Shown one piece after another: positions 37,259 to 53,195 of a stretch of 64,000 nucleotides of DNA. The number at the start of each line of letters is the position of its first letter. The first letter of the stretch is position 1. The stretch is from positions 62,001 to 126,000 of the forward strand of contig NZ_JAHWXP010000001.1 in the NCBI RefSeq assembly GCF_019857185.1. Direction: 5' to 3'. The DNA is from Alteriqipengyuania abyssalis. GTDB taxonomy: Bacteria > Pseudomonadota > Alphaproteobacteria > Sphingomonadales > Sphingomonadaceae. The notes below the pieces were generated by a model. The model was given only the letters and a program-made list of their open reading frames with translations, was not told where the DNA came from and searched no databases. Made by a program: the position numbers and the translations under genes.

Positions 37259-37335
37259 GGCGGAGTAGCTCAGGTGGTTAGAGCAGCGGAATCATAATCC
37301 GCGTGTCGGGGGTTCGAGTCCCTCCTCCGCTACCA
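37259..37335 (+). tRNA. tRNA-Met (CAT), probably elongator; insertion site
   Basis: A full 77-nt cloverleaf: acceptor GGCGGAG pairs with CTCCGCT (one G-U), anticodon loop ATCATAA (CAT), T-arm GGGGGTTCGAGTCCCTC, and encoded CCA. CAT could also mark the lysidine tRNA-Ile2, but the acceptor and arms look like elongator Met. An integrase gene starts 178 nt downstream and points away, so the 3' half is the likely attachment site. Confidence 0.93.
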
Positions 37336-37513: not shown

Positions 37514-38767
37514 ATGGCCTTGAGTGAGATTCAGATCAAAAAATCGAAGGCGGCAGAGCGCCCATACAAGCTTGCGGATGGGGAGGGTCTATTCCTCCTT
37601 GTTCAAAAGAACGGCTCGAAGCTCTGGCGGTTGAAATACCGGTACCACGGTAAGGAGAAGCTGCTTTCTTTCGGCGCCTATCCCGAAGTAGGAATAGCGG
37701 CAGCAAGAGAACTCAAGAAAGTTGCCAAGGGGGTGTTGGCCGAGGGCCGGGACCCGATGGTCCACAAACCAGGTCGGGATTTCGAAGAAGCCAAGACCTT
37801 CAGGGCGATCGCCACCATGTGGCATCAGAACAGAGCAAGTAGTCTCGATCCCGCGCATGCGAAGCGTGTCTGGTCACGCATGGACCAGGATGTGTTTCCT
37901 GCCTTGGGCGAGCTCATGATGCATGAGATCACCCCACCAGAAGTGCTGAAGGTCATTCGGAAAATCGAAGAGCGCGGCGCGCTCGACATCAGTCGGCGGG
38001 CAAAGCAATGTATTGGACAAGTGTTCCAGTTCGCTATTGCCAGCGGCCTTTGTGATTCCGACCCTACTGCGCATCTTCGTGGGGCATTGAAGCCACGGCC
38101 TCGGGTCAAGCATATGGCGAAGCTACCTCTCGCGCAGCTACCCGAGCTGATGATTAAGATCGAGCAATATCAAGAAGAGGGTGAGAGACGCTCCGAGATT
38201 ACCCGGGCAGCATTGAATTTCGCTCTTCTTACATGGGTGCGGACGAAGGAGCTTCGGTTCGCCAAGAAGCACGAGTTCCAAGATATGGGTGGACCTTCAC
38301 CAGTATGGCGCATTGGCGCTGATCGGATGAAAATGGGCCGCGAGCATATTGTGCCATTGTCACGGCAAGCTGTCTCCCTAGCCCAAGAAATGATCAGCAA
38401 GTCCGAAGGCGAATACGTTTTTCCAGGTCAGAAGCCCAAGATGCCGCTTTCCGAGAATACGATGATCTACGGCCTATATCGGCTCGGGTATCACGGGCGG
38501 CAAACTGTTCATGGTTTCAGAGGTCTGGCGAGTACTTGGGCAAATGAGCAGCTTGTCGAAGTGGGAGAGCCCCCGATGTGGATCCGGAGATACCATGAGG
38601 ATTGGGTCGAACTTCAATTGGCGCACAGCGAAGAGAACGAAGTTCGCGGAGCCTACAATGCTGCGGAGTATCTCGCTCCTCGTCGTGCAATGTTGCAGGA
38701 TTGGGCGGATTACCTCGACTGCCTTGGCGGCAAAGCGCAGAACATTGCTGTTTTGAGGGCCGCTTGA
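37514..38767 (+). CDS. int: P4-type tyrosine integrase
   Basis: Site-specific recombinase of 417 residues. The N-terminal DUF4102-type arm-binding domain (LSEIQIKKSKAAERPYKLADGEGLFLLV) is followed by the core-binding and catalytic domains. Catalytic residues are in WVRTKELRFAKK (Arg I), TVHGFRGLASTWANE (HxxR) and the region HSEENEVRGAYNAAEYLAPRRAML (His and nucleophile Tyr). It lies 178 nt from tRNA-Met and points into the island, the standard layout. Base composition looks more AT-rich than the host genes upstream, in keeping with transfer. Confidence 0.95.
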   Translation: MALSEIQIKKSKAAERPYKLADGEGLFLLVQKNGSKLWRLKYRYHGKEKLLSFGAYPEVGIAAARELKKVAKGVLAEGRDPMVHKPGRDFEEAKTFRAIATMWHQNRASSLDPAHAKRVWSRMDQDVFPALGELMMHEITPPEVLKVIRKIEERGALDISRRAKQCIGQVFQFAIASGLCDSDPTAHLRGALKPRPRVKHMAKLPLAQLPELMIKIEQYQEEGERRSEITRAALNFALLTWVRTKELRFAKKHEFQDMGGPSPVWRIGADRMKMGREHIVPLSRQAVSLAQEMISKSEGEYVFPGQKPKMPLSENTMIYGLYRLGYHGRQTVHGFRGLASTWANEQLVEVGEPPMWIRRYHEDWVELQLAHSEENEVRGAYNAAEYLAPRRAMLQDWADYLDCLGGKAQNIAVLRAA

Positions 38768-44935: not shown

Positions 44936-44970
44936 TCCCTCGGGCAGACCCCTATCTCAGAATGAGAGTG

Positions 44971-45042
44971 GAGGGAGCCCTTTGGGCTTGTGGGCCTCGT
45001 GATCCTCACCTGCGCCTTCATTCCATCAGGAGAACACCCATG
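44971..45042 (+). promoter_or_regulatory. Leader of the ParB gene with CAGGAG element
   Basis: A small hairpin AGCCC-TTT-GGGCT (44976-44988) is followed by CCATCAGGAGAACACCC and the ATG at 45040. Confidence 0.48.
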
Positions 45043-47013
45043 ATCCAGTCGATTCCTTTGAAGAAGCTCGTCCCGAGCCCGCGCAACGTTCGCAACTCGA
45101 GCGACGTGCTGGCCGACCTCCAGCTGCGGGCAGACATTGTAGCGCGCGGCTTGCTGCAGAACCTTGTCGTGCGCAAAGGAAAGCGCGGCAAGTTCGAGGT
45201 CGAGGCCGGCGGTCGCCGCCTCGCTGCGCTGCAGGCGCTGGCCGAAGAGGGCACCTTGCCCGACAACCACGAGGTCACCTGCCTCGTCATCGAAGGCGAG
45301 GAAAGCGAAGTGCGCGAGGCCAGCCTTGCCGAGAACTTCCAGCGACTCGCAATGAACCCGGCCGACGAGGCGCAAGCCTTCGCTTCCATCATCGAGGCGG
45401 GAGCCACCCCTGAAGACGTGGCGCGTCGCTTCGGCCTCACCGTCCGGTTCGTCGAAGGGCGTCTGCGCCTGGCCTCTCTCGCGCCTTGCGTCTTTGAAGC
45501 CCTCGCCGAAGGCACGATCACGCTCGACATGGCGAAGGCCTACGGTGCGATTTCCGACGTGGAGCGCCAGGCGCATGTCTATGCAGAGTTGCAGGACGCC
45601 TGGTACGAGATCACGCCCGACACGATCCGCCGCATGGTGCTCGACGCCACGGTGCGCGGTTCCGATCCGCGAGCTGTCCTCGTCGGACGCGACGCCTACC
45701 TCGCCGCAGGTGGCCGGATCGAGCGCGAACTGTTCGACGATGATGCCAGCGAGAGCTGGATCGATGTCGCGCTGCTTGAGGACCTCGCGCACAAGGCCAT
45801 GGAAGAGGCAGCAGAAAAGACCGCGCTCGAATATGGCCTTGCCTGGGTGCGCCCGACACTTGGCACCTATGTCAGCCATGACCTCGTCGAAGGTCTCGGC
45901 CGTCTGCCATGCGAGCCTGCGCCAATGACCGAGCAGGAAGCGCAGGAGCTCGGCGAACTCGAGGCCGACTACGACCGCGTCGCCGCTGTGCTCGAAGACG
46001 AGGACAGCGACGAGGACGAGATTGCCAAGGCCGAACAGGAACTCGTGGTGATCGACCGTGCAATGCGTGCGATCAACGATCGCCCACCGGTCTTGGCCGA
46101 CGAGCTGAAGGCCGTGGCCGGTGCCTTCCTCGTCCTCTCGCGCAATGGCGAACCGACCTTGGTTCCACAGTTCTACACCGAGGCCGAAGTCATCGCTGAC
46201 GAAGGTGTGGTCGAGACCATCGAGGAAAGCGGTGCGGCGAAGCCCAAAGGGAGCTCGCTGTCCCAGCGCTTGCTTGACGAGCTCGCGATGCAACGCCGCG
46301 ACATCCTGGCAATCCATCTCGCCAATGATCCGGCACTGGCGCTCGACTTCATGGTTTTCACGCTCGCTGATGCCGATGGGCATGACTGGCGCGCCAAGAA
46401 AGCTTCGACCCTGGTCGGCTCGGTTGCGTCCGGGCCTGTCACCGGGTTCGAGGCCAAGGATGCACCGGCGAGTGCTGCGCTGGCCGAGTTCGCCGGTTCG
46501 CTCGACGAAAGCTGGCGCTCGGGAGAGAGTGATGTCGAGCGGTTTGCGAAGTTTCGAGCGCTTTCCGACGAGGCACGTTCGGCCTGGCTCGGCCATGTCG
46601 TCTCGCGCACTCTGGTTGCCAGCCTGGCCTGTGAAGGCGAACGCTCGGTGCCGCTGCACGAGGCGCTCGGCTCGCTCCTCGAAATCGAGACCGCGCATTG
46701 GTGGCGTCCCACGGCAGCCAACTACTTCGACCGCGTGGCCAAGGCCCGCACGCTCGAAGCGCTCGATGCCGCTGGCGGTCCCGAACTGGTCAGTCGCTAT
46801 GCTGCTTCGAAGAAGGCAGAACTGGCGAGTGCTGCCGAGCGCATTTTCTCGGGCAACTTCATCGGCGAGGCAGATATCAAGGAACGAGCGCAGGCCTGGG
46901 TACCTTCGATCATGCGTTTCGCCGGTGCCGAAGAGGTCGAACCGGTTGACGCCGAAGGGGATGAGCCGGTCAGCAATGTTACAGCTGATGAGATAGCCGA
47001 GCAGGCTGCCTGA
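45040..47013 (+). CDS. Large ParB/Spo0J-domain protein
   Basis: A 657-residue protein. The N-terminal 120 residues are a ParB N-domain (IPLKKLVPSPRNVR; the box FEVEAGGRRLAALQAL; LAENFQRLAMNPADEAQAF), followed by a KorB/ParB-type HTH (PEDVARRFGLTVRFVEGRLRLASL). The remaining 450 residues are acidic and of no family I can name. ParB N-domains load CTP in true partition proteins; here no parA is adjacent, so segregation is not assured. Related proteins occur next to DarB-like genes on sphingomonad islands. A long terminator follows. Confidence 0.86.
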   Translation: MIQSIPLKKLVPSPRNVRNSSDVLADLQLRADIVARGLLQNLVVRKGKRGKFEVEAGGRRLAALQALAEEGTLPDNHEVTCLVIEGEESEVREASLAENFQRLAMNPADEAQAFASIIEAGATPEDVARRFGLTVRFVEGRLRLASLAPCVFEALAEGTITLDMAKAYGAISDVERQAHVYAELQDAWYEITPDTIRRMVLDATVRGSDPRAVLVGRDAYLAAGGRIERELFDDDASESWIDVALLEDLAHKAMEEAAEKTALEYGLAWVRPTLGTYVSHDLVEGLGRLPCEPAPMTEQEAQELGELEADYDRVAAVLEDEDSDEDEIAKAEQELVVIDRAMRAINDRPPVLADELKAVAGAFLVLSRNGEPTLVPQFYTEAEVIADEGVVETIEESGAAKPKGSSLSQRLLDELAMQRRDILAIHLANDPALALDFMVFTLADADGHDWRAKKASTLVGSVASGPVTGFEAKDAPASAALAEFAGSLDESWRSGESDVERFAKFRALSDEARSAWLGHVVSRTLVASLACEGERSVPLHEALGSLLEIETAHWWRPTAANYFDRVAKARTLEALDAAGGPELVSRYAASKKAELASAAERIFSGNFIGEADIKERAQAWVPSIMRFAGAEEVEPVDAEGDEPVSNVTADEIAEQAA

Positions 47014-47042
47014 CCCCTCCTGACAGGTCCAGGTCACTCGGC

Positions 47043-47078
47043 AGGCGGTCCGTTCCATTTGGGACGGGCCGCCTTTTC
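47043..47078 (+). terminator. Rho-independent terminator after the ParB gene
   Basis: A 14-bp stem with two G-U pairs (arms 47043-47056 and 47061-47074) around ATTT, followed by a short T run. It isolates the following peptide cassette from the ParB transcript. Confidence 0.85.
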
Positions 47079-47196
47079 ATGTCAGATATCGGTTCGATAG
47101 ATGACCACTCCCGCTAAATGATCACACGCCAAAAGCAGGCAATAAATGTGCCGACGTATTGATTTTTCTAACTTCCAGAGAAAGGGTGTAGCGATC

Positions 47197-47271
47197 ATGA
47201 GAACCACGCCCGCCGCCAAATGCACTGAGCGATACAAGGACCCGACAAGAAGGGAACGAAAGCCAGGATGA
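47197..47271 (+). CDS. Possible 24-residue upstream ORF coupled to the graspetide precursor
   Basis: ATG at 47197 (after AAAGGGTG) opens a 24-codon frame (MRTTPAAKCTERYKDPTRRE then RKPG) whose TGA overlaps the ATG of the precursor gene. It is very basic. It could couple translation of the precursor or be a leader peptide; it may also be chance. Confidence 0.35.
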   Translation: MRTTPAAKCTERYKDPTRRERKPG

Positions 47272-47780
47272 CGACGAATACCCTGACGCGACGAACTGAG
47301 CCATTCCTAATGGGTTTCGCCACTGAGCGAGGTGGGGAAGTCGAGGAGTTGCGCGGTCGTTACAGCGACCGTCGCCAGATGTGGGTCGTCGAGGCCGAAG
47401 GGGTCGAGATCCCGATCGTCCAGGCCGGGGCAACGATGCTAGGCCAGACCCACACTAAGACCATGACCCAGGTAGAGGCGGACGACGACGACCAAGCGCG
47501 CGGCGCCTTGGGAGAGACGTCGACCACAACCCGCGTGCGGCAGGAGACGGACGACCAAGACCATGACATGATGGCTTTCGGCGGGACAAGGACATTGACT
47601 GAGGTACAGCAAGAGGCCGACGACCAAGACCAGAGCTTGGCCCCGATGGCGGAGACTTCTACGCTGACCAAGGTTAGGCAGGAGGCGGACGATCAGGATG
47701 CATCGCTTGCACTCCCTGAGCTGCAGACAAAGACCGATGTCCAGCAGGAGACTGACGACCAAGCCGGAATGTTGATCTGA
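47268..47780 (+). CDS. Multi-core graspetide precursor peptide
   Basis: A 170-residue precursor. Residues 1-58 are the leader, with EPFLMGFATE and RRQMWVVEAEGVEIPIVQ. Residues 61-166 hold five tandem cores at a 23-residue period (22 for the last), starting at 61, 84, 107, 130 and 152. The consensus is TxTxTxVxQExDDQD: cores 2, 3 and 4 match fully; core 1 is less regular and core 5 has lost its first Thr and last Asp. Thr hydroxyls and Glu/Asp carboxyls are the usual partners for omega-ester links made by ATP-grasp ligases. The ligase gene follows after 9 nt. Ring pattern and activity are unknown. Confidence 0.87.
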   Translation: MTTNTLTRRTEPFLMGFATERGGEVEELRGRYSDRRQMWVVEAEGVEIPIVQAGATMLGQTHTKTMTQVEADDDDQARGALGETSTTTRVRQETDDQDHDMMAFGGTRTLTEVQQEADDQDQSLAPMAETSTLTKVRQEADDQDASLALPELQTKTDVQQETDDQAGMLI

Positions 47781-47789
47781 CCAGCCCCG

Positions 47790-48725
47790 ATGACCGTCCT
47801 TCTGGCCACCAACAAGCGCGACGTGACGACGGATTTCATCGCCCTTGAGCTTGAGCGTAGGGCCTTGGCCTTCCACAGGCTCAACACTGAGGACATGCTT
47901 GAATACCGCGTCTTAATGCCGAACGGTGATCCATCCTGTATGCGTCTCGTTAATCGAACACGCGAACTTGAACTCAGCGAGGTGACCGGGGCCTATTACC
48001 GCCGCCCCCTTCCGCCGGAAATCCCCCATAACACCCCGTCAACCGCTGCTTATATGCAGGCGGAATGGTCAGCCATACTAAGGAGCGTGTGGAACGCGCT
48101 TGCAGGGCGGTGGCTCAATTGTCCCTTTGCGATACTGCGAGCTGAGGACAAACCAAGACAGCTGGCCGTCGCACGGGCGGAAGGGCTGCAGGTTCCGCGG
48201 ACCCTGATTACTAACGATGCTGAGCATGCGAAGAACTTCTTGGCGGACGGTGCAATCGTGGCGAAGCCGCTACGCCACGCACTCATCGAAGACGGAGGCG
48301 CCGGCAAAGTCGTTTTCACGTCGCGGGTCGAACAGGACAACGGGCTGACTGGAATCGAAAGCGCACCGGTGATTCTGCAGAGTGAGGTGCCCAAGCGTGC
48401 GGATGTGCGCGTTATTGTCGTCGATGACCAAGTCTTCGCGACCATGATCGAATCGCAGGCACACGAAGAAACAAGTGTCGACTGGCGCAAGGGCGTGCGG
48501 ACGGACTTGGAGCATCGCGCTATTACTCTGCCTCACGAAGTCGAAAAGGCCTGCGTAGCAGTGACACGTTCTCTCGATCTGCGGTACTCTGCGATCGATC
48601 TCATCGAAGATCCTGGCGGCATCTTCTGGTTCCTCGAGGCTAATCCAAACGGCCAATGGGCGTGGATTGAGCAACGCACCGGAGCTCGGATCGCAGAGGC
48701 TATCGTTTCGGGGCTGGTCAGATGA
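47790..48725 (+). CDS. MvdC/MvdD-type ATP-grasp peptide ligase (graspetide maturase)
   Basis: A 311-residue ATP-grasp enzyme predicted to form ester links between Thr and Glu/Asp side chains of the adjacent precursor. The N-terminal pre-ATP-grasp part has LLATNKRDVTTDFI, HRLNTED and the YYRRP segment at 69-73. The ATP-grasp core has VAKPL at 158-162, the QSEVPKRADVRVIVV strand at 197-211, and the hallmark FLEANPNGQWAWIEQRTG at 281-298 with the metal-binding Glu and Asn. This last motif is characteristic of microviridin-type ligases. It overlaps the next gene by ATGA. The codon style appears less GC-rich than neighbouring island genes. Confidence 0.92.
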   Translation: MTVLLATNKRDVTTDFIALELERRALAFHRLNTEDMLEYRVLMPNGDPSCMRLVNRTRELELSEVTGAYYRRPLPPEIPHNTPSTAAYMQAEWSAILRSVWNALAGRWLNCPFAILRAEDKPRQLAVARAEGLQVPRTLITNDAEHAKNFLADGAIVAKPLRHALIEDGGAGKVVFTSRVEQDNGLTGIESAPVILQSEVPKRADVRVIVVDDQVFATMIESQAHEETSVDWRKGVRTDLEHRAITLPHEVEKACVAVTRSLDLRYSAIDLIEDPGGIFWFLEANPNGQWAWIEQRTGARIAEAIVSGLVR

Positions 48726-49549
48726 ATCTCCTCGACCTCCTATTCCCCTATGCCGAGCCTCTATCGGACGCTGAGAGCAAAGCGCAGAAAGAAGGCCTCG
48801 ACAGCGATATCGCCGCCATCGAGTCTGCCAAGTTCAAAAACGATCCCGCCCGCGCGCTTGCGGAGGCCCAACGCGTGGCCGACGCCGAGACCGCCAGGGT
48901 CCGCACTGCTGAAACAAAGGCTACGACCTATCTCGCCGTTCTCGCGGCGCTGGTCCCTCTTATCATTGCGTTCCAGGCGGCGACTTGGGAGGAACGAGCT
49001 GGTCCGGCCCCGACCTGGTTGAAGCTGCTCGTACTGAGCGTGGCCATGATCTACTTGGCGGCTGCGGGATACCACGCGTTTCGAACATTGCAGGTTTCGG
49101 GCTTCGAGCGGGTCGTGGAAGGAGAGATCGCGGCTGCTTGGAGCACGCGTCAACCGCTCCGTAGGCTGACACGAAGCACACTGCTCGCTTCCCGCCGGTC
49201 GAGAAATGCAGTCAACCGGAAGGTCACCTGCATCAAGGTTACCCACGAACATCTCATCCGCGCATTCGCGGCGTTCGTGCTCATGCTCGCGCTCGACCCA
49301 ATCTTCTACGCCGTTGATTGGACAATGGGCGATGCTGACGGGTCGGTCAAAGATACTCCGACGGCCGCAGCGACAATTGCTGTCGAAGCAACCGGAGAGG
49401 TCTCGGATGAAAGTCGAGAAGCGTTGCCGGCAGACGACGGTCCAGTGGTCGGCCCTTCGGGCACGCCTTCCACTGGAACTCCTGAGGCACCGCCAGCACA
49501 ACCGGGCTCAGATGCCGACGGATCTCCAAGGGGCGTGCGAAAGGACTGA
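48722..49549 (+). CDS. Three-helix membrane protein of the graspetide cassette
   Basis: A 275-residue protein coupled to the ligase gene by a 4-nt overlap. Residues 16-68 form a charged helix (AEAQRVADAETARVRTAETK); helices follow at about 69-85, 99-117 and 180-197; a Thr/Ser/Pro/acid-rich tail of 75 residues ends it. The N-terminal coil plus two close helices recalls 2TM effector (SLATT-like) proteins of conflict systems, but this is only a resemblance. It could be immunity, export or the target of the peptide. No transporter ATPase or peptidase is in the cassette. Confidence 0.72.
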   Translation: MNLLDLLFPYAEPLSDAESKAQKEGLDSDIAAIESAKFKNDPARALAEAQRVADAETARVRTAETKATTYLAVLAALVPLIIAFQAATWEERAGPAPTWLKLLVLSVAMIYLAAAGYHAFRTLQVSGFERVVEGEIAAAWSTRQPLRRLTRSTLLASRRSRNAVNRKVTCIKVTHEHLIRAFAAFVLMLALDPIFYAVDWTMGDADGSVKDTPTAAATIAVEATGEVSDESREALPADDGPVVGPSGTPSTGTPEAPPAQPGSDADGSPRGVRKD

Positions 49550-49633
49550 GCGCAGTCATGATGGGTGAGGTGCTTCCGGCCGGCTGAGACCCCGACATCT
49601 GCTGTTAGGATCAGCCTCCTTCATCACAAGCAT

Positions 49634-49645
49634 CCCAAATTTGGG
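49634..49645. promoter_or_regulatory. Perfect 12-bp palindrome upstream of the ArdC gene
   Basis: CCCAAATTTGGG, about 90 nt before the ATG. This is operator-like, but no regulator is identified. Confidence 0.4.
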
Positions 49646-49667
49646 CGCAAAGGACCCACCAAGTACG

Positions 49668-49736
49668 AGAGCAGAGGGAGCTTTGCTCTTCCTGAACCGG
49701 GACATGTCCGTCCCGGCGATCAGGAGAACTCCCATG
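49668..49736 (+). promoter_or_regulatory. Two-hairpin CAGGAG leader of the ArdC gene
   Basis: Hairpin 1 pairs AGAGCA with TGCTCT (49668-49689). Hairpin 2 pairs CCGGGAC with GTCCCGG (49697-49716). CGATCAGGAGAACTCCC then leads to the ATG at 49734. Confidence 0.55.
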
Positions 49737-50663
49737 ACCAAATCCCGCCGCACTGCTTCAGATTCGCCAGCCCGGCGCATCACCGATGCCATCATCGAAA
49801 AGCTTGAGCAAGGCACCAAGCCCTGGGTCAAGCCGTGGCGAGGCGTGCCGGATTCACGGCCCTTGCGCTCCTGTGGAACCCCCTATCGCGGCATGAACAC
49901 CTTCTGGTTGTGGATGGTGGCCGATGGCTGCGGATACGCCTCGCCATACTGGATGACCTACCGTCAGTGCCAGAAGCTCGGCGGACAGGTCCGCAAAGGC
50001 GAAAAATCGACCATCGCGATCTTCTACAAGAGCTACACCAAGGAGGTCGAGAACGCCGAAGGCGAAGCCGACACTGAAAACCGGCGTGTGCTCAAGGCCT
50101 ATGCCGTGTTCAATGCCGATCAGTGCGACGGCCTCCCTGAGTTCTACCATCCCAAGCCGCTGGTTGCCGCGCTTGAGCCCGAAGGGCGCAAAGAGCGGCT
50201 CGATGCCTTCTTTGCCCATATCGGCGCAGACCTGCGCCACCATGGCGCGCAGGCCTATTACGAACCGCTGCGCGACCGCGTCACCATGCCGCCAGCTGAA
50301 CTGTTCGAAGCCTACGACCACTACTACGCGACGCTCGCACACGAGTTGTCGCACTGGACGGGTCATTCTTCGCGGCTCGACCGCGATCTCAAGAACCGCT
50401 TCGGCAGCGACGCCTATGCGGCCGAGGAACTGATCGCCGAACTGTCCTCGGCCATTCTCGGGGCAGAACTGGGTCTTCCGGTCACACACCTTGACCATCA
50501 CGCCAGCTACATCGCGTCCTGGCTCAAGATCCTCAAATCAGACGAGCGTGCGATCCTCACCGCTGCGGCCAAGGCCGAGGAAGCGGCCAGCCTGCTGCTC
50601 GAGCTTGGTGGCCACCAGTCCTGCGAAGGGGAGGCCAACATCGATCTCGCCGATGCAGCCTGA
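49734..50663 (+). CDS. ArdC-like antirestriction metalloprotein
   Basis: A 309-residue protein with the ArdC N-terminal ssDNA-binding domain (ITDAIIEKLEQGTKPWVKPW; the PYRGMNTFWLWM segment; GQVRKGEKSTIAIFYKSY) and a C-terminal zincin-like peptidase with LAHELSHWTGHSSRL (HExxH) and the Glu of ELIAELSSAI. ArdC-type proteins protect incoming single-stranded DNA from restriction during conjugation. It begins after the CAGGAG leader at MTKSRRTASD. Together with the DarB-like protein it gives the element two distinct antirestriction candidates. Confidence 0.92.
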   Translation: MTKSRRTASDSPARRITDAIIEKLEQGTKPWVKPWRGVPDSRPLRSCGTPYRGMNTFWLWMVADGCGYASPYWMTYRQCQKLGGQVRKGEKSTIAIFYKSYTKEVENAEGEADTENRRVLKAYAVFNADQCDGLPEFYHPKPLVAALEPEGRKERLDAFFAHIGADLRHHGAQAYYEPLRDRVTMPPAELFEAYDHYYATLAHELSHWTGHSSRLDRDLKNRFGSDAYAAEELIAELSSAILGAELGLPVTHLDHHASYIASWLKILKSDERAILTAAAKAEEAASLLLELGGHQSCEGEANIDLADAA

Positions 50664-52321: not shown

Positions 52322-52433
52322 CTAATTGGTTCTTGTTTCGTGCGGTAGGCCAACAGCCTTTTGTAGTCCGATGCAAATTCGCCTGGCTTTACGCCCCCGC
52401 CCGGTCCTCCTTCGACAATATAAGAGCACTGGT

Positions 52434-53195
52434 GGTGCGGCTGAAGTCGATCAGGTCTACTTCCCGCAGCTCGAGGTCATCGGCGACATCGCCGGATCGG
52501 TCGAGCGGCTGGGAAACCGTCTGGATGGCAAGCTGCAGTGCGATCGCAGCTATTACACTGTGCTGCACCACGAGATTGCTTCGCACATTTCCGAGACCAG
52601 CGACGACGAACGTTTTCCGATGGTCCCCCAGCGCGTGGTTGCCGACGTACGCAGCGTAATGGCGCGCGATGATATCGTTGCGCTCGACAACGGTATCTAC
52701 AAGATCTGGTTCGCCAGAAACTACATTGCGAATGAACCGGGTACCATCCTTCTCGACAATGCATTGGCGACGATGGGCGCAGGCCTTCCATCGGCCATGA
52801 TAGCGGCGATGCTGTCGCCGGGGCGCAGAGTGCTCGCGGTATGCGGCGATGGCGGGTTCATGATGAACTCGCAGGAGCTGGAAACGGCCGTCAGGCTGGG
52901 CCTGAACCTCGTCGTACTCGTCCTGAACGATGCGGCATACGGCATGATCCGCTGGAAGCAGGACCAGCTCGGCTTTCCGGACTACGGCCTAACCTTTTCC
53001 AATCCCGACTTCGTCACCTACGCACAAAGCTATGGAGCGACCGGTCACCGGGTCGAGCGGAGCGCAGATCTTGTGGCGGTCCTGAACGCCGCATTCGAGG
53101 CGGGCGGCGTGCACCTTGTCGATCTGCCCGTCGACTACTCCGAAAACAAGAAGGTGCTGATCGACGAACTCGGCGCAAAGGTGTGCGAGCTATGA
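52434..53195 (+). pseudogene. 5'-truncated acetolactate synthase-like gene
   Basis: From the AEVDQVYFPQLEVIGDIAG segment onward the frame matches the second half of a ThDP acetohydroxyacid synthase-type enzyme, including the ThDP motif CGDGGFMMNSQELETAV to VLND. The N-terminal half with the catalytic Glu is missing; the upstream frame (SCGRPTAFCSPMQ) is unrelated. An enzyme without its PYR domain should be inactive. The cut lies near 52,435, next to the island genes, so it probably marks a recombination joint. It still overlaps the following ALDH gene by ATGA. Confidence 0.82.

What the first reader, a model, noticed from the sequence alone, without database searches (positions are those of the whole stretch)
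47448..47765. Five cores at a 23-residue period, with degenerate ends
Cores 2-4 (precursor residues 84-98, 107-121, 130-144) are near identical at the Thr, Gln, Glu and Asp positions while linkers vary. Core 1 (61-75) has a shifted pattern and core 5 (152-166) lacks the first Thr and last Asp. Strong conservation of T, E and D with drifting linkers points to selection on ring-forming residues; the two outer cores may be decaying or make fewer rings. Three Thr and four acids per core allow up to three esters.
Basis: partly seen in the sequence, partly recalled or inferred. Interest (0 to 1): 0.8.

Follow-up and report, generated by a model that had tools for sequence, protein, structure and literature searches.

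The report
Five-core ester-ring peptide precursor, mobile
The gene encodes a 170-residue precursor with five copies of a short Thr/Glu/Asp module that a neighbouring enzyme probably ties into ester rings; it belongs to a known peptide class (graspetides), and its two unusual end copies are conserved module types rather than worn-out ones.

Summary
The 170-aa ORF at 47268-47780 carries five 15-residue cores at exactly the stated coordinates, spaced 23, 23, 23 and 22 residues, far above chance. It heads a three-gene operon: precursor, graspetide-type ATP-grasp ligase (47790-48725), and a three-helix membrane protein (48722-49549). Precursors beside 78 distinct homologous ligases carry the same core, TxTxxxxExDD. 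This is a multicore graspetide locus of the thuringinin-like kind, not a new class.

The selection claim is supported. In ten three-core relatives, 18 of 19 Thr/Glu/Asp ring positions are invariant and the other is Ser/Thr; linkers vary far more. The decay claim is not supported. Core 1 keeps all seven ring residues, and core 5's missing first Thr and last Asp are shared by all ten relatives and by most cores in other phyla. Relatives have three cores (first, middle, last); this lineage has three middle cores. First, middle and last cores keep different loops, so the product looks like an ordered set of distinct modules.

Whether cores 1-4 make a third ester is open; sequence covariation does not settle it. 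The operon is cargo, inserted between parB and ardC of an element beside tRNA-Met and an integrase.

The parts
47268..47780 (+). graspetide precursor, 170 aa
   Evidence: ORF; homologous precursors upstream of the same ligase, 78 distinct ligases
47268..47441 (+). leader, residues 1-58, with EPFLMGFAT (relatives D/E-PFLLRFAT; compare microviridin PFFARFL) and GRYxxxxxxWVV
   Evidence: alignment of relatives; PFFARFL / Phhx(1,2)h motif described in PMC8939145
47448..47492 (+). core 1, residues 61-75, THTKTMTQVEADDDD ('first' type: T1, K4, D15)
47517..47561 (+). core 2, residues 84-98, TSTTTRVRQETDDQD ('middle' type)
47586..47630 (+). core 3, residues 107-121, TRTLTEVQQEADDQD ('middle' type)
47655..47699 (+). 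core 4, residues 130-144, TSTLTKVRQEADDQD ('middle' type); identical in protein to the only middle core of L005
47700..47720 (+). conserved linker ASLALPE before the last core
47721..47765 (+). core 5, residues 152-166, LQTKTDVQQETDDQA ('last' type, canonical: no T1, no D15)
47790..48725 (+). ATP-grasp ligase, graspetide synthetase type (best model TIGR04187, 266 bits, below its cut-off of 350)
   Evidence: invariant residues across 38 homologues
48722..49549 (+). predicted three-transmembrane-helix protein conserved third in the operon; no Pfam family or solved fold
44962..47013 (+). ParB-like protein, upstream border of the inserted operon
49641..50663 (+). ArdC-like antirestriction protein, downstream border (ORF as listed from TTG; an in-frame ATG lies at 49734)
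37514..38767 (+). tyrosine integrase of the element that carries the operon, just past tRNA-Met (37259-37335)

Best explanation
This is a multicore graspetide biosynthetic operon of the thuringinin-like kind. The leader of the precursor (PFLxxFAT) recruits the ATP-grasp ligase encoded next to it. The ligase activates side-chain carboxylates of E10 and D12/D13 in each core with ATP and joins them to the hydroxyls of T3 and T5, giving at least two ester rings per core (inferred). Cores 1-4 carry one further Thr (T1) and one further Asp (D15) and may form a third ring; core 5 is the common two-Thr form. The five cores are not redundant copies: relatives keep a fixed order first-middle-last with different conserved loops (MTQV, xVRQ, DVQQ), and this lineage has three middle cores. 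The membrane protein is probably needed for export or for a step at the membrane. The peptide is plausibly a multivalent protease inhibitor, as other characterised graspetides are. Shown by sequence: operon, enzyme family, cores, constraint, core types, mobility. Inferred: ester formation, ring count, export, activity.
For: Ligase: TIGR04187 2.9e-79, MvdC/MvdD 1e-47 to 1e-50, solved graspetide ligases 7m4s (AMdnB), 5ig8, 5ig9 and 7mgv (CdnC) at 1e-60 to 1e-67 by profile, with FLExNPNGQW and a DWR triplet invariant among 38 homologues. Precursor: beside 78 distinct ligases, mostly two to five TxTxxxxExDD cores. Constraint on ring residues. Position-specific core types and three-core relatives. 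Published match: precursors with several repeats of Lee group 3, 5 or 6 motifs sharing a leader (cluster 13), and an uncharacterised membrane protein specific to thuringinin loci (cluster 18) (PMC8939145). Precedent for two esters per repeat (thuringinin) and for three nested esters (OEP6-1): PMC12291112.
Against: No ring has been shown. The ligase falls below the curated cut-off of every NCBIfam maturase model. No peptidase or ABC exporter is encoded in the operon, so maturation is unexplained. The motifs of Lee groups 3, 5 and 6 could not be read (paper not held), so the exact group is unassigned.
Confidence: 0.88

Rival explanations
1. The outer cores are decaying and make fewer rings.
For: Core 5 lacks T1 and D15 and core 1 has a different loop. 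Truly degenerate cores exist elsewhere in the family: last core of L033 (LQPQILAGREGCDDF) and cores in L044.
Against: All ten relatives have the same first and last core types with conserved ring residues; position 1 of the last core is always Leu/Ile and position 15 always Ala/Val/Ile. Core 5 has the canonical form seen across phyla. Core 1 has all seven ring residues.
Confidence: 0.05
2. Cores 1-4 form three nested esters (T5-E10, T3-D12 or D13, T1-D15) and core 5 two, up to 14 rings in one chain.
For: T1 is invariant in first and middle cores of relatives where other cores have Leu. T1 cores have an acid at 15 in 27/27 alphaproteobacterial cases against 14/53 of the rest, with no such association at 14 or 16; three alphaproteobacterial ligase clades carry such cores. 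A three-nested-ester graspetide, OEP6-1, is known.
Against: Every core without Lys4 has an acid at 15 whether or not T1 is present (26/26), so the two may simply descend together; the nine K4 cores with T1 are one homologous core. Outside Alphaproteobacteria T1 does not go with an acid at 15 (1/8).
Confidence: 0.35
3. Lys4 of the TKT form (cores 1 and 5) makes an omega-amide, so the canonical core is T,K,T with E,D,D, and cores 2-4 replace the Lys link by T1-D15.
For: Lys4 is in 98% of the non-alphaproteobacterial cores; three conserved nucleophiles face three conserved acids; all 28 unique cores without Lys4 have an acid at 15 against 34 of 164 with Lys4.
Against: Eight of the 26 alphaproteobacterial cores without Lys4 also lack T1, leaving D15 without that partner; core 1 has both K4 and D15; thuringinin, the nearest characterised kind, has two esters per repeat. 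Lys4 could equally be a salt bridge or a contact to the ligase.
Confidence: 0.15
4. The repeats are an acidic, unmodified repeat protein (for example metal-binding) and the ligase acts elsewhere.
For: Asp-rich repeats; the element carries copper resistance genes.
Against: Strict linkage of this precursor to a graspetide-type ligase over several phyla, a microviridin-like leader motif, and constraint on Thr as well as acids.
Confidence: 0.04

Closest known systems
Thuringinin-like graspetides (cluster 13 of Makarova et al. 2022; Lee groups 3, 5, 6)
   Same: Several T/E/D cores behind one shared leader, a single ATP-grasp ligase, an uncharacterised membrane protein in the locus (PMC8939145)
   Different: Five cores of three position-specific types; T1/D15 cores in place of the TKT form at most positions; carried on an integrative element. 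Group motifs and cluster members were not available for direct comparison.
OEP6-1 (Lee group 6)
   Same: Possible model for three nested esters in a stem-loop (PMC12291112)
   Different: Whether the T1-T3-T5 / E10-D12-D13-D15 core has that connectivity is untested
Plesiocin (group 2)
   Same: Tandem hairpin-like cores with two esters each, one ligase
   Different: Plesiocin's TTxxxxEE core (recalled, not read here) is absent; cores here are TxTxxxxExDD
Microviridins (MdnB/MdnC)
   Same: Homologous ligases and a similar leader motif (PFLxRFAT vs PFFARFL)
   Different: No TxKxPSD core; one ligase instead of two; multicore

Membership tests
Graspetides (class) | ATP-grasp ligase of the MvdC/MvdD/graspetide synthetase type next to the precursor | tested here: met
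Graspetides (class) | leader with a P-h-h-x(1,2)-h recognition motif | tested here: met
   EPFLMGFAT in the window, D/E-P-F/Y-L-x-R-F in relatives; motif from PMC8939145
Graspetides (class) | core with Thr/Ser/Lys preceding Asp/Glu, conserved across homologues | tested here: met
Graspetides (class) | side-chain ester or amide links in the product | not testable with these tools
   needs co-expression and MS
Thuringinin-like (cluster 13; Lee groups 3/5/6) | several repeats of a T/E/D core behind one leader | tested here: met
   description
Thuringinin-like (cluster 13; Lee groups 3/5/6) | exact core motif of one of the groups | not tested
   defining papers not held; motifs not readable
Thuringinin-like (cluster 13; Lee groups 3/5/6) | cluster 18 membrane protein in the locus | tested here: inconclusive
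NCBIfam TIGR04187 (SAV_5884-type maturase) | score above the curated cut-off of 350 bits | tested here: not met
   266.5 bits
MvdC / MvdD equivalogs (microviridin ligases) | score above cut-offs 425 / 475 bits | tested here: not met
   170.9 / 162.1 bits
Microviridin | TxKxPSD core | tested here: not met
   absent from the translated precursor; motif from PMC7823629

The most novel reading that the evidence does not exclude
One precursor mixes two ring chemistries made by one ligase: a canonical TKT-type core and a T1/D15-type core with a third nested ester, so that cores 1-5 become an ordered, hetero-multivalent chain with up to 14 cross-links. Across the family a third link would be either Lys4-based or T1-D15-based.
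Probability: 0.15. Interest if true: 0.7.

Novelty: new member of a known kind. Interest (0 to 1): 0.38.

Why it matters
It indicates that copies in a multicore graspetide precursor are position-specific modules under purifying selection rather than interchangeable or decaying repeats, and gives a simple rule to test (every core without Lys4 has an acid at position 15). A precursor with both core types would let ring number per core be compared in one MS experiment with one enzyme. It also places such an operon as cargo of a mobile element in sphingomonads.

Tried and rejected
Selection for dissimilar codons between cores (to avoid recombination) was tested and not found: DNA identity matches random synonymous coding. 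T1-D15 covariation as proof of a third ester was rejected as confounded with core type. The third gene was searched in Pfam, PDB sequences and PDB folds from a good model (pLDDT 83.5): no PDB match below E 0.05 and only scattered weak Pfam hits in single members. Attempts to read the papers that define the Lee and Ramesh groups failed (not held). A first start-codon pattern search of the own genome served only to place the window.

Full report
Check of the observation. The precursor ORF runs from 47268 to 47780 (+), 170 aa. Self-match at a lag of 23 residues is 37, against a best of 24 at any lag in 10,000 shuffles. The spacing is 23, 23, 23 and 22. Numbering each core 1-15, all five have T3, T5, E10, D12 and D13; cores 1-4 also have T1 and D15, core 5 has Leu and Ala there. 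Core 1 differs in its loop only (MTQV), not in ring residues.

The operon. Ten bases downstream lies an ATP-grasp gene (47790-48725) and, overlapping its end, a membrane protein gene (48722-49549). The ligase matches TIGR04187 (2.9e-79), MvdC (3.5e-50) and MvdD (1.7e-47), all below curated cut-offs, and by profile the solved graspetide ligases 7m4s, 5ig8, 5ig9 and 7mgv at E of 1e-60 to 1e-67, plus 9bou at 4e-48. Its C-terminal FLExNPNGQW and a DWR triplet are invariant in 38 homologues. The leader contains EPFLMGFAT; relatives have D/E-PFLLRFAT, close to the microviridin leader motif PFFARFL described in PMC8939145.

Homologues. One scan of species genomes gave 79 loci, four plasmid loci were added, and samples of the same family, order, class and phylum a few more. 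Precursors beside 78 distinct ligases carry mostly two to five cores of the form TxTxxxxExDD, in Alpha-, Beta- and Gammaproteobacteria, Bacteroidota, Nitrospirota and Bacillota. The commonest core is ELxTKTxxxxExDD: Leu at position 1 (86% outside Alphaproteobacteria), Lys at 4 (98%), nothing fixed at 15. These percentages come from cores picked with a pattern that already demands T/S at 3 and 5 and acids at 10, 12 and 13, so they say nothing about those five positions; the constraint test below was made on a free alignment.

Constraint. Ten three-core relatives (ligase about 61-68% identical to the window's) were aligned without that pattern. The 19 T/S/E/D ring positions have mean entropy 0.046 bit, other core positions 0.69, linkers 0.80 (permutation p 1e-5 against other core positions, 3e-5 against linkers). 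Eighteen of the 19 are invariant and the other is Ser or Thr. Against two near relatives (96% ligase identity) the cores show 6 synonymous and at most 1 non-synonymous change, the leader 4 and 3. Window against L005: cores pS 0.95, pN 0.03; ligase pS 0.73, pN 0.22; core 4 is identical in protein to the middle core of L005 while 12 of 45 bases differ. Within the window the cores differ in DNA as much as random synonymous coding would give (279 against 271 expected identities over all pairs). So the similarity of the cores is held by selection. Core loops are constrained too: MTQV in the first, xVRQ in the middle, DVQQ in the last.

The ends are not degenerate. Relatives have three cores in fixed order: first (TQ[ST]KTMTQVExDDDD), middle (ETSTxTRVRQExDDxDAS) and last (ELQTKTDVQQExDDxx). 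The window and its close relatives L003, L004/L020 and L034 have five: first, three middle, last. Position 1 of the last core is Leu/Ile and position 15 Ala/Val/Ile in all ten relatives, as in the canonical core. Decayed cores do occur in the family (L033 last core, L044), but not here. The linker before the last core (ASLxLPE) is conserved, contrary to the picture of drifting linkers.

Ring number. In Alphaproteobacteria T1 is accompanied by an acid at 15 in 27 of 27 distinct cores, against 14 of 53 without T1; positions 14 and 16 show no such association there. On the ligase tree the cores with T1 and D15 fall in three alphaproteobacterial clades and one Nitrospirota row, with five changes by parsimony. 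But every core without Lys4 has an acid at 15 whether or not T1 is present (26 of 26 in Alphaproteobacteria, 2 of 2 elsewhere; 34 of 164 with Lys4). The T1-D15 link is therefore confounded with core type, and a third ester is possible, not shown. Thuringinin has two esters per repeat and OEP6-1 three nested ones (PMC12291112).

Third gene. It is present directly after the ligase in nearly all loci, shares E56, R59 and N165 in all 43 aligned members, and is predicted as long helices with three membrane segments (pLDDT 83.5). No Pfam family, PDB sequence or PDB fold matches it convincingly. Makarova et al. describe an uncharacterised membrane protein specific to thuringinin loci and suggest peptide transport; this is probably the same family, not verified.

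Setting. A tRNA-Met (37259-37335) is followed by a tyrosine integrase (37514-38767), a primase-like protein, a strawberry-notch helicase, ParB and ArdC, then copper and metal resistance genes. In the Sphingomonas aliaeris plasmid (L106) parB and ardC are 141 bp apart; in the window, Croceicoccus mobilis (L034) and a MAG (L020) the operon lies between them. None of nine sampled same-genus genomes has the ligase. The operon is mobile cargo (inference from these facts).

Verdict. A real multicore graspetide locus of a published kind, with constraint on ring residues confirmed and the decay reading rejected. What is new is modest: position-specific core types, the Lys4/acid-15 rule, and the mobile setting. 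Ring formation, ring number and activity remain to be shown by experiment.

Noticed in passing
window 37259-64000: Integrative element beside tRNA-Met with integrase, plasmid-like backbone (primase, helicase, ParB, ArdC) and copper/heavy-metal resistance cargo (P-type ATPase, multicopper oxidase, RND pump, FTR1-cytochrome fusion).
   Followed up: partly
window 47014-49640: The three-gene operon is inserted between parB and ardC, which lie 141 bp apart in a Sphingomonas aliaeris plasmid (L106); same insertion in L034 and L020.
   Followed up: yes
cores of all loci, L001-L105: All 28 distinct cores without Lys4 have an acid at position 15; only 34 of 164 with Lys4 do.
   Followed up: partly
window 48722-49549: Membrane protein conserved in nearly all loci, no Pfam, PDB sequence or PDB fold match.
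   Followed up: partly
window 52326-53195: ORF holding only the C-terminal domain of a thiamine-pyrophosphate enzyme, next to an aldehyde dehydrogenase; looks truncated.
   Followed up: no
L033 upstream of 4001; L044 135-560: Relatives with truly degenerate cores (Thr lost), showing that core decay does occur in the family.
   Followed up: no
L090 upstream of 4001: Bacteroidia precursor with ladder-like cores (TETFTKADGEDADTD, TSTLTESTESTDQDKD) that may form three or four nested links.
   Followed up: no
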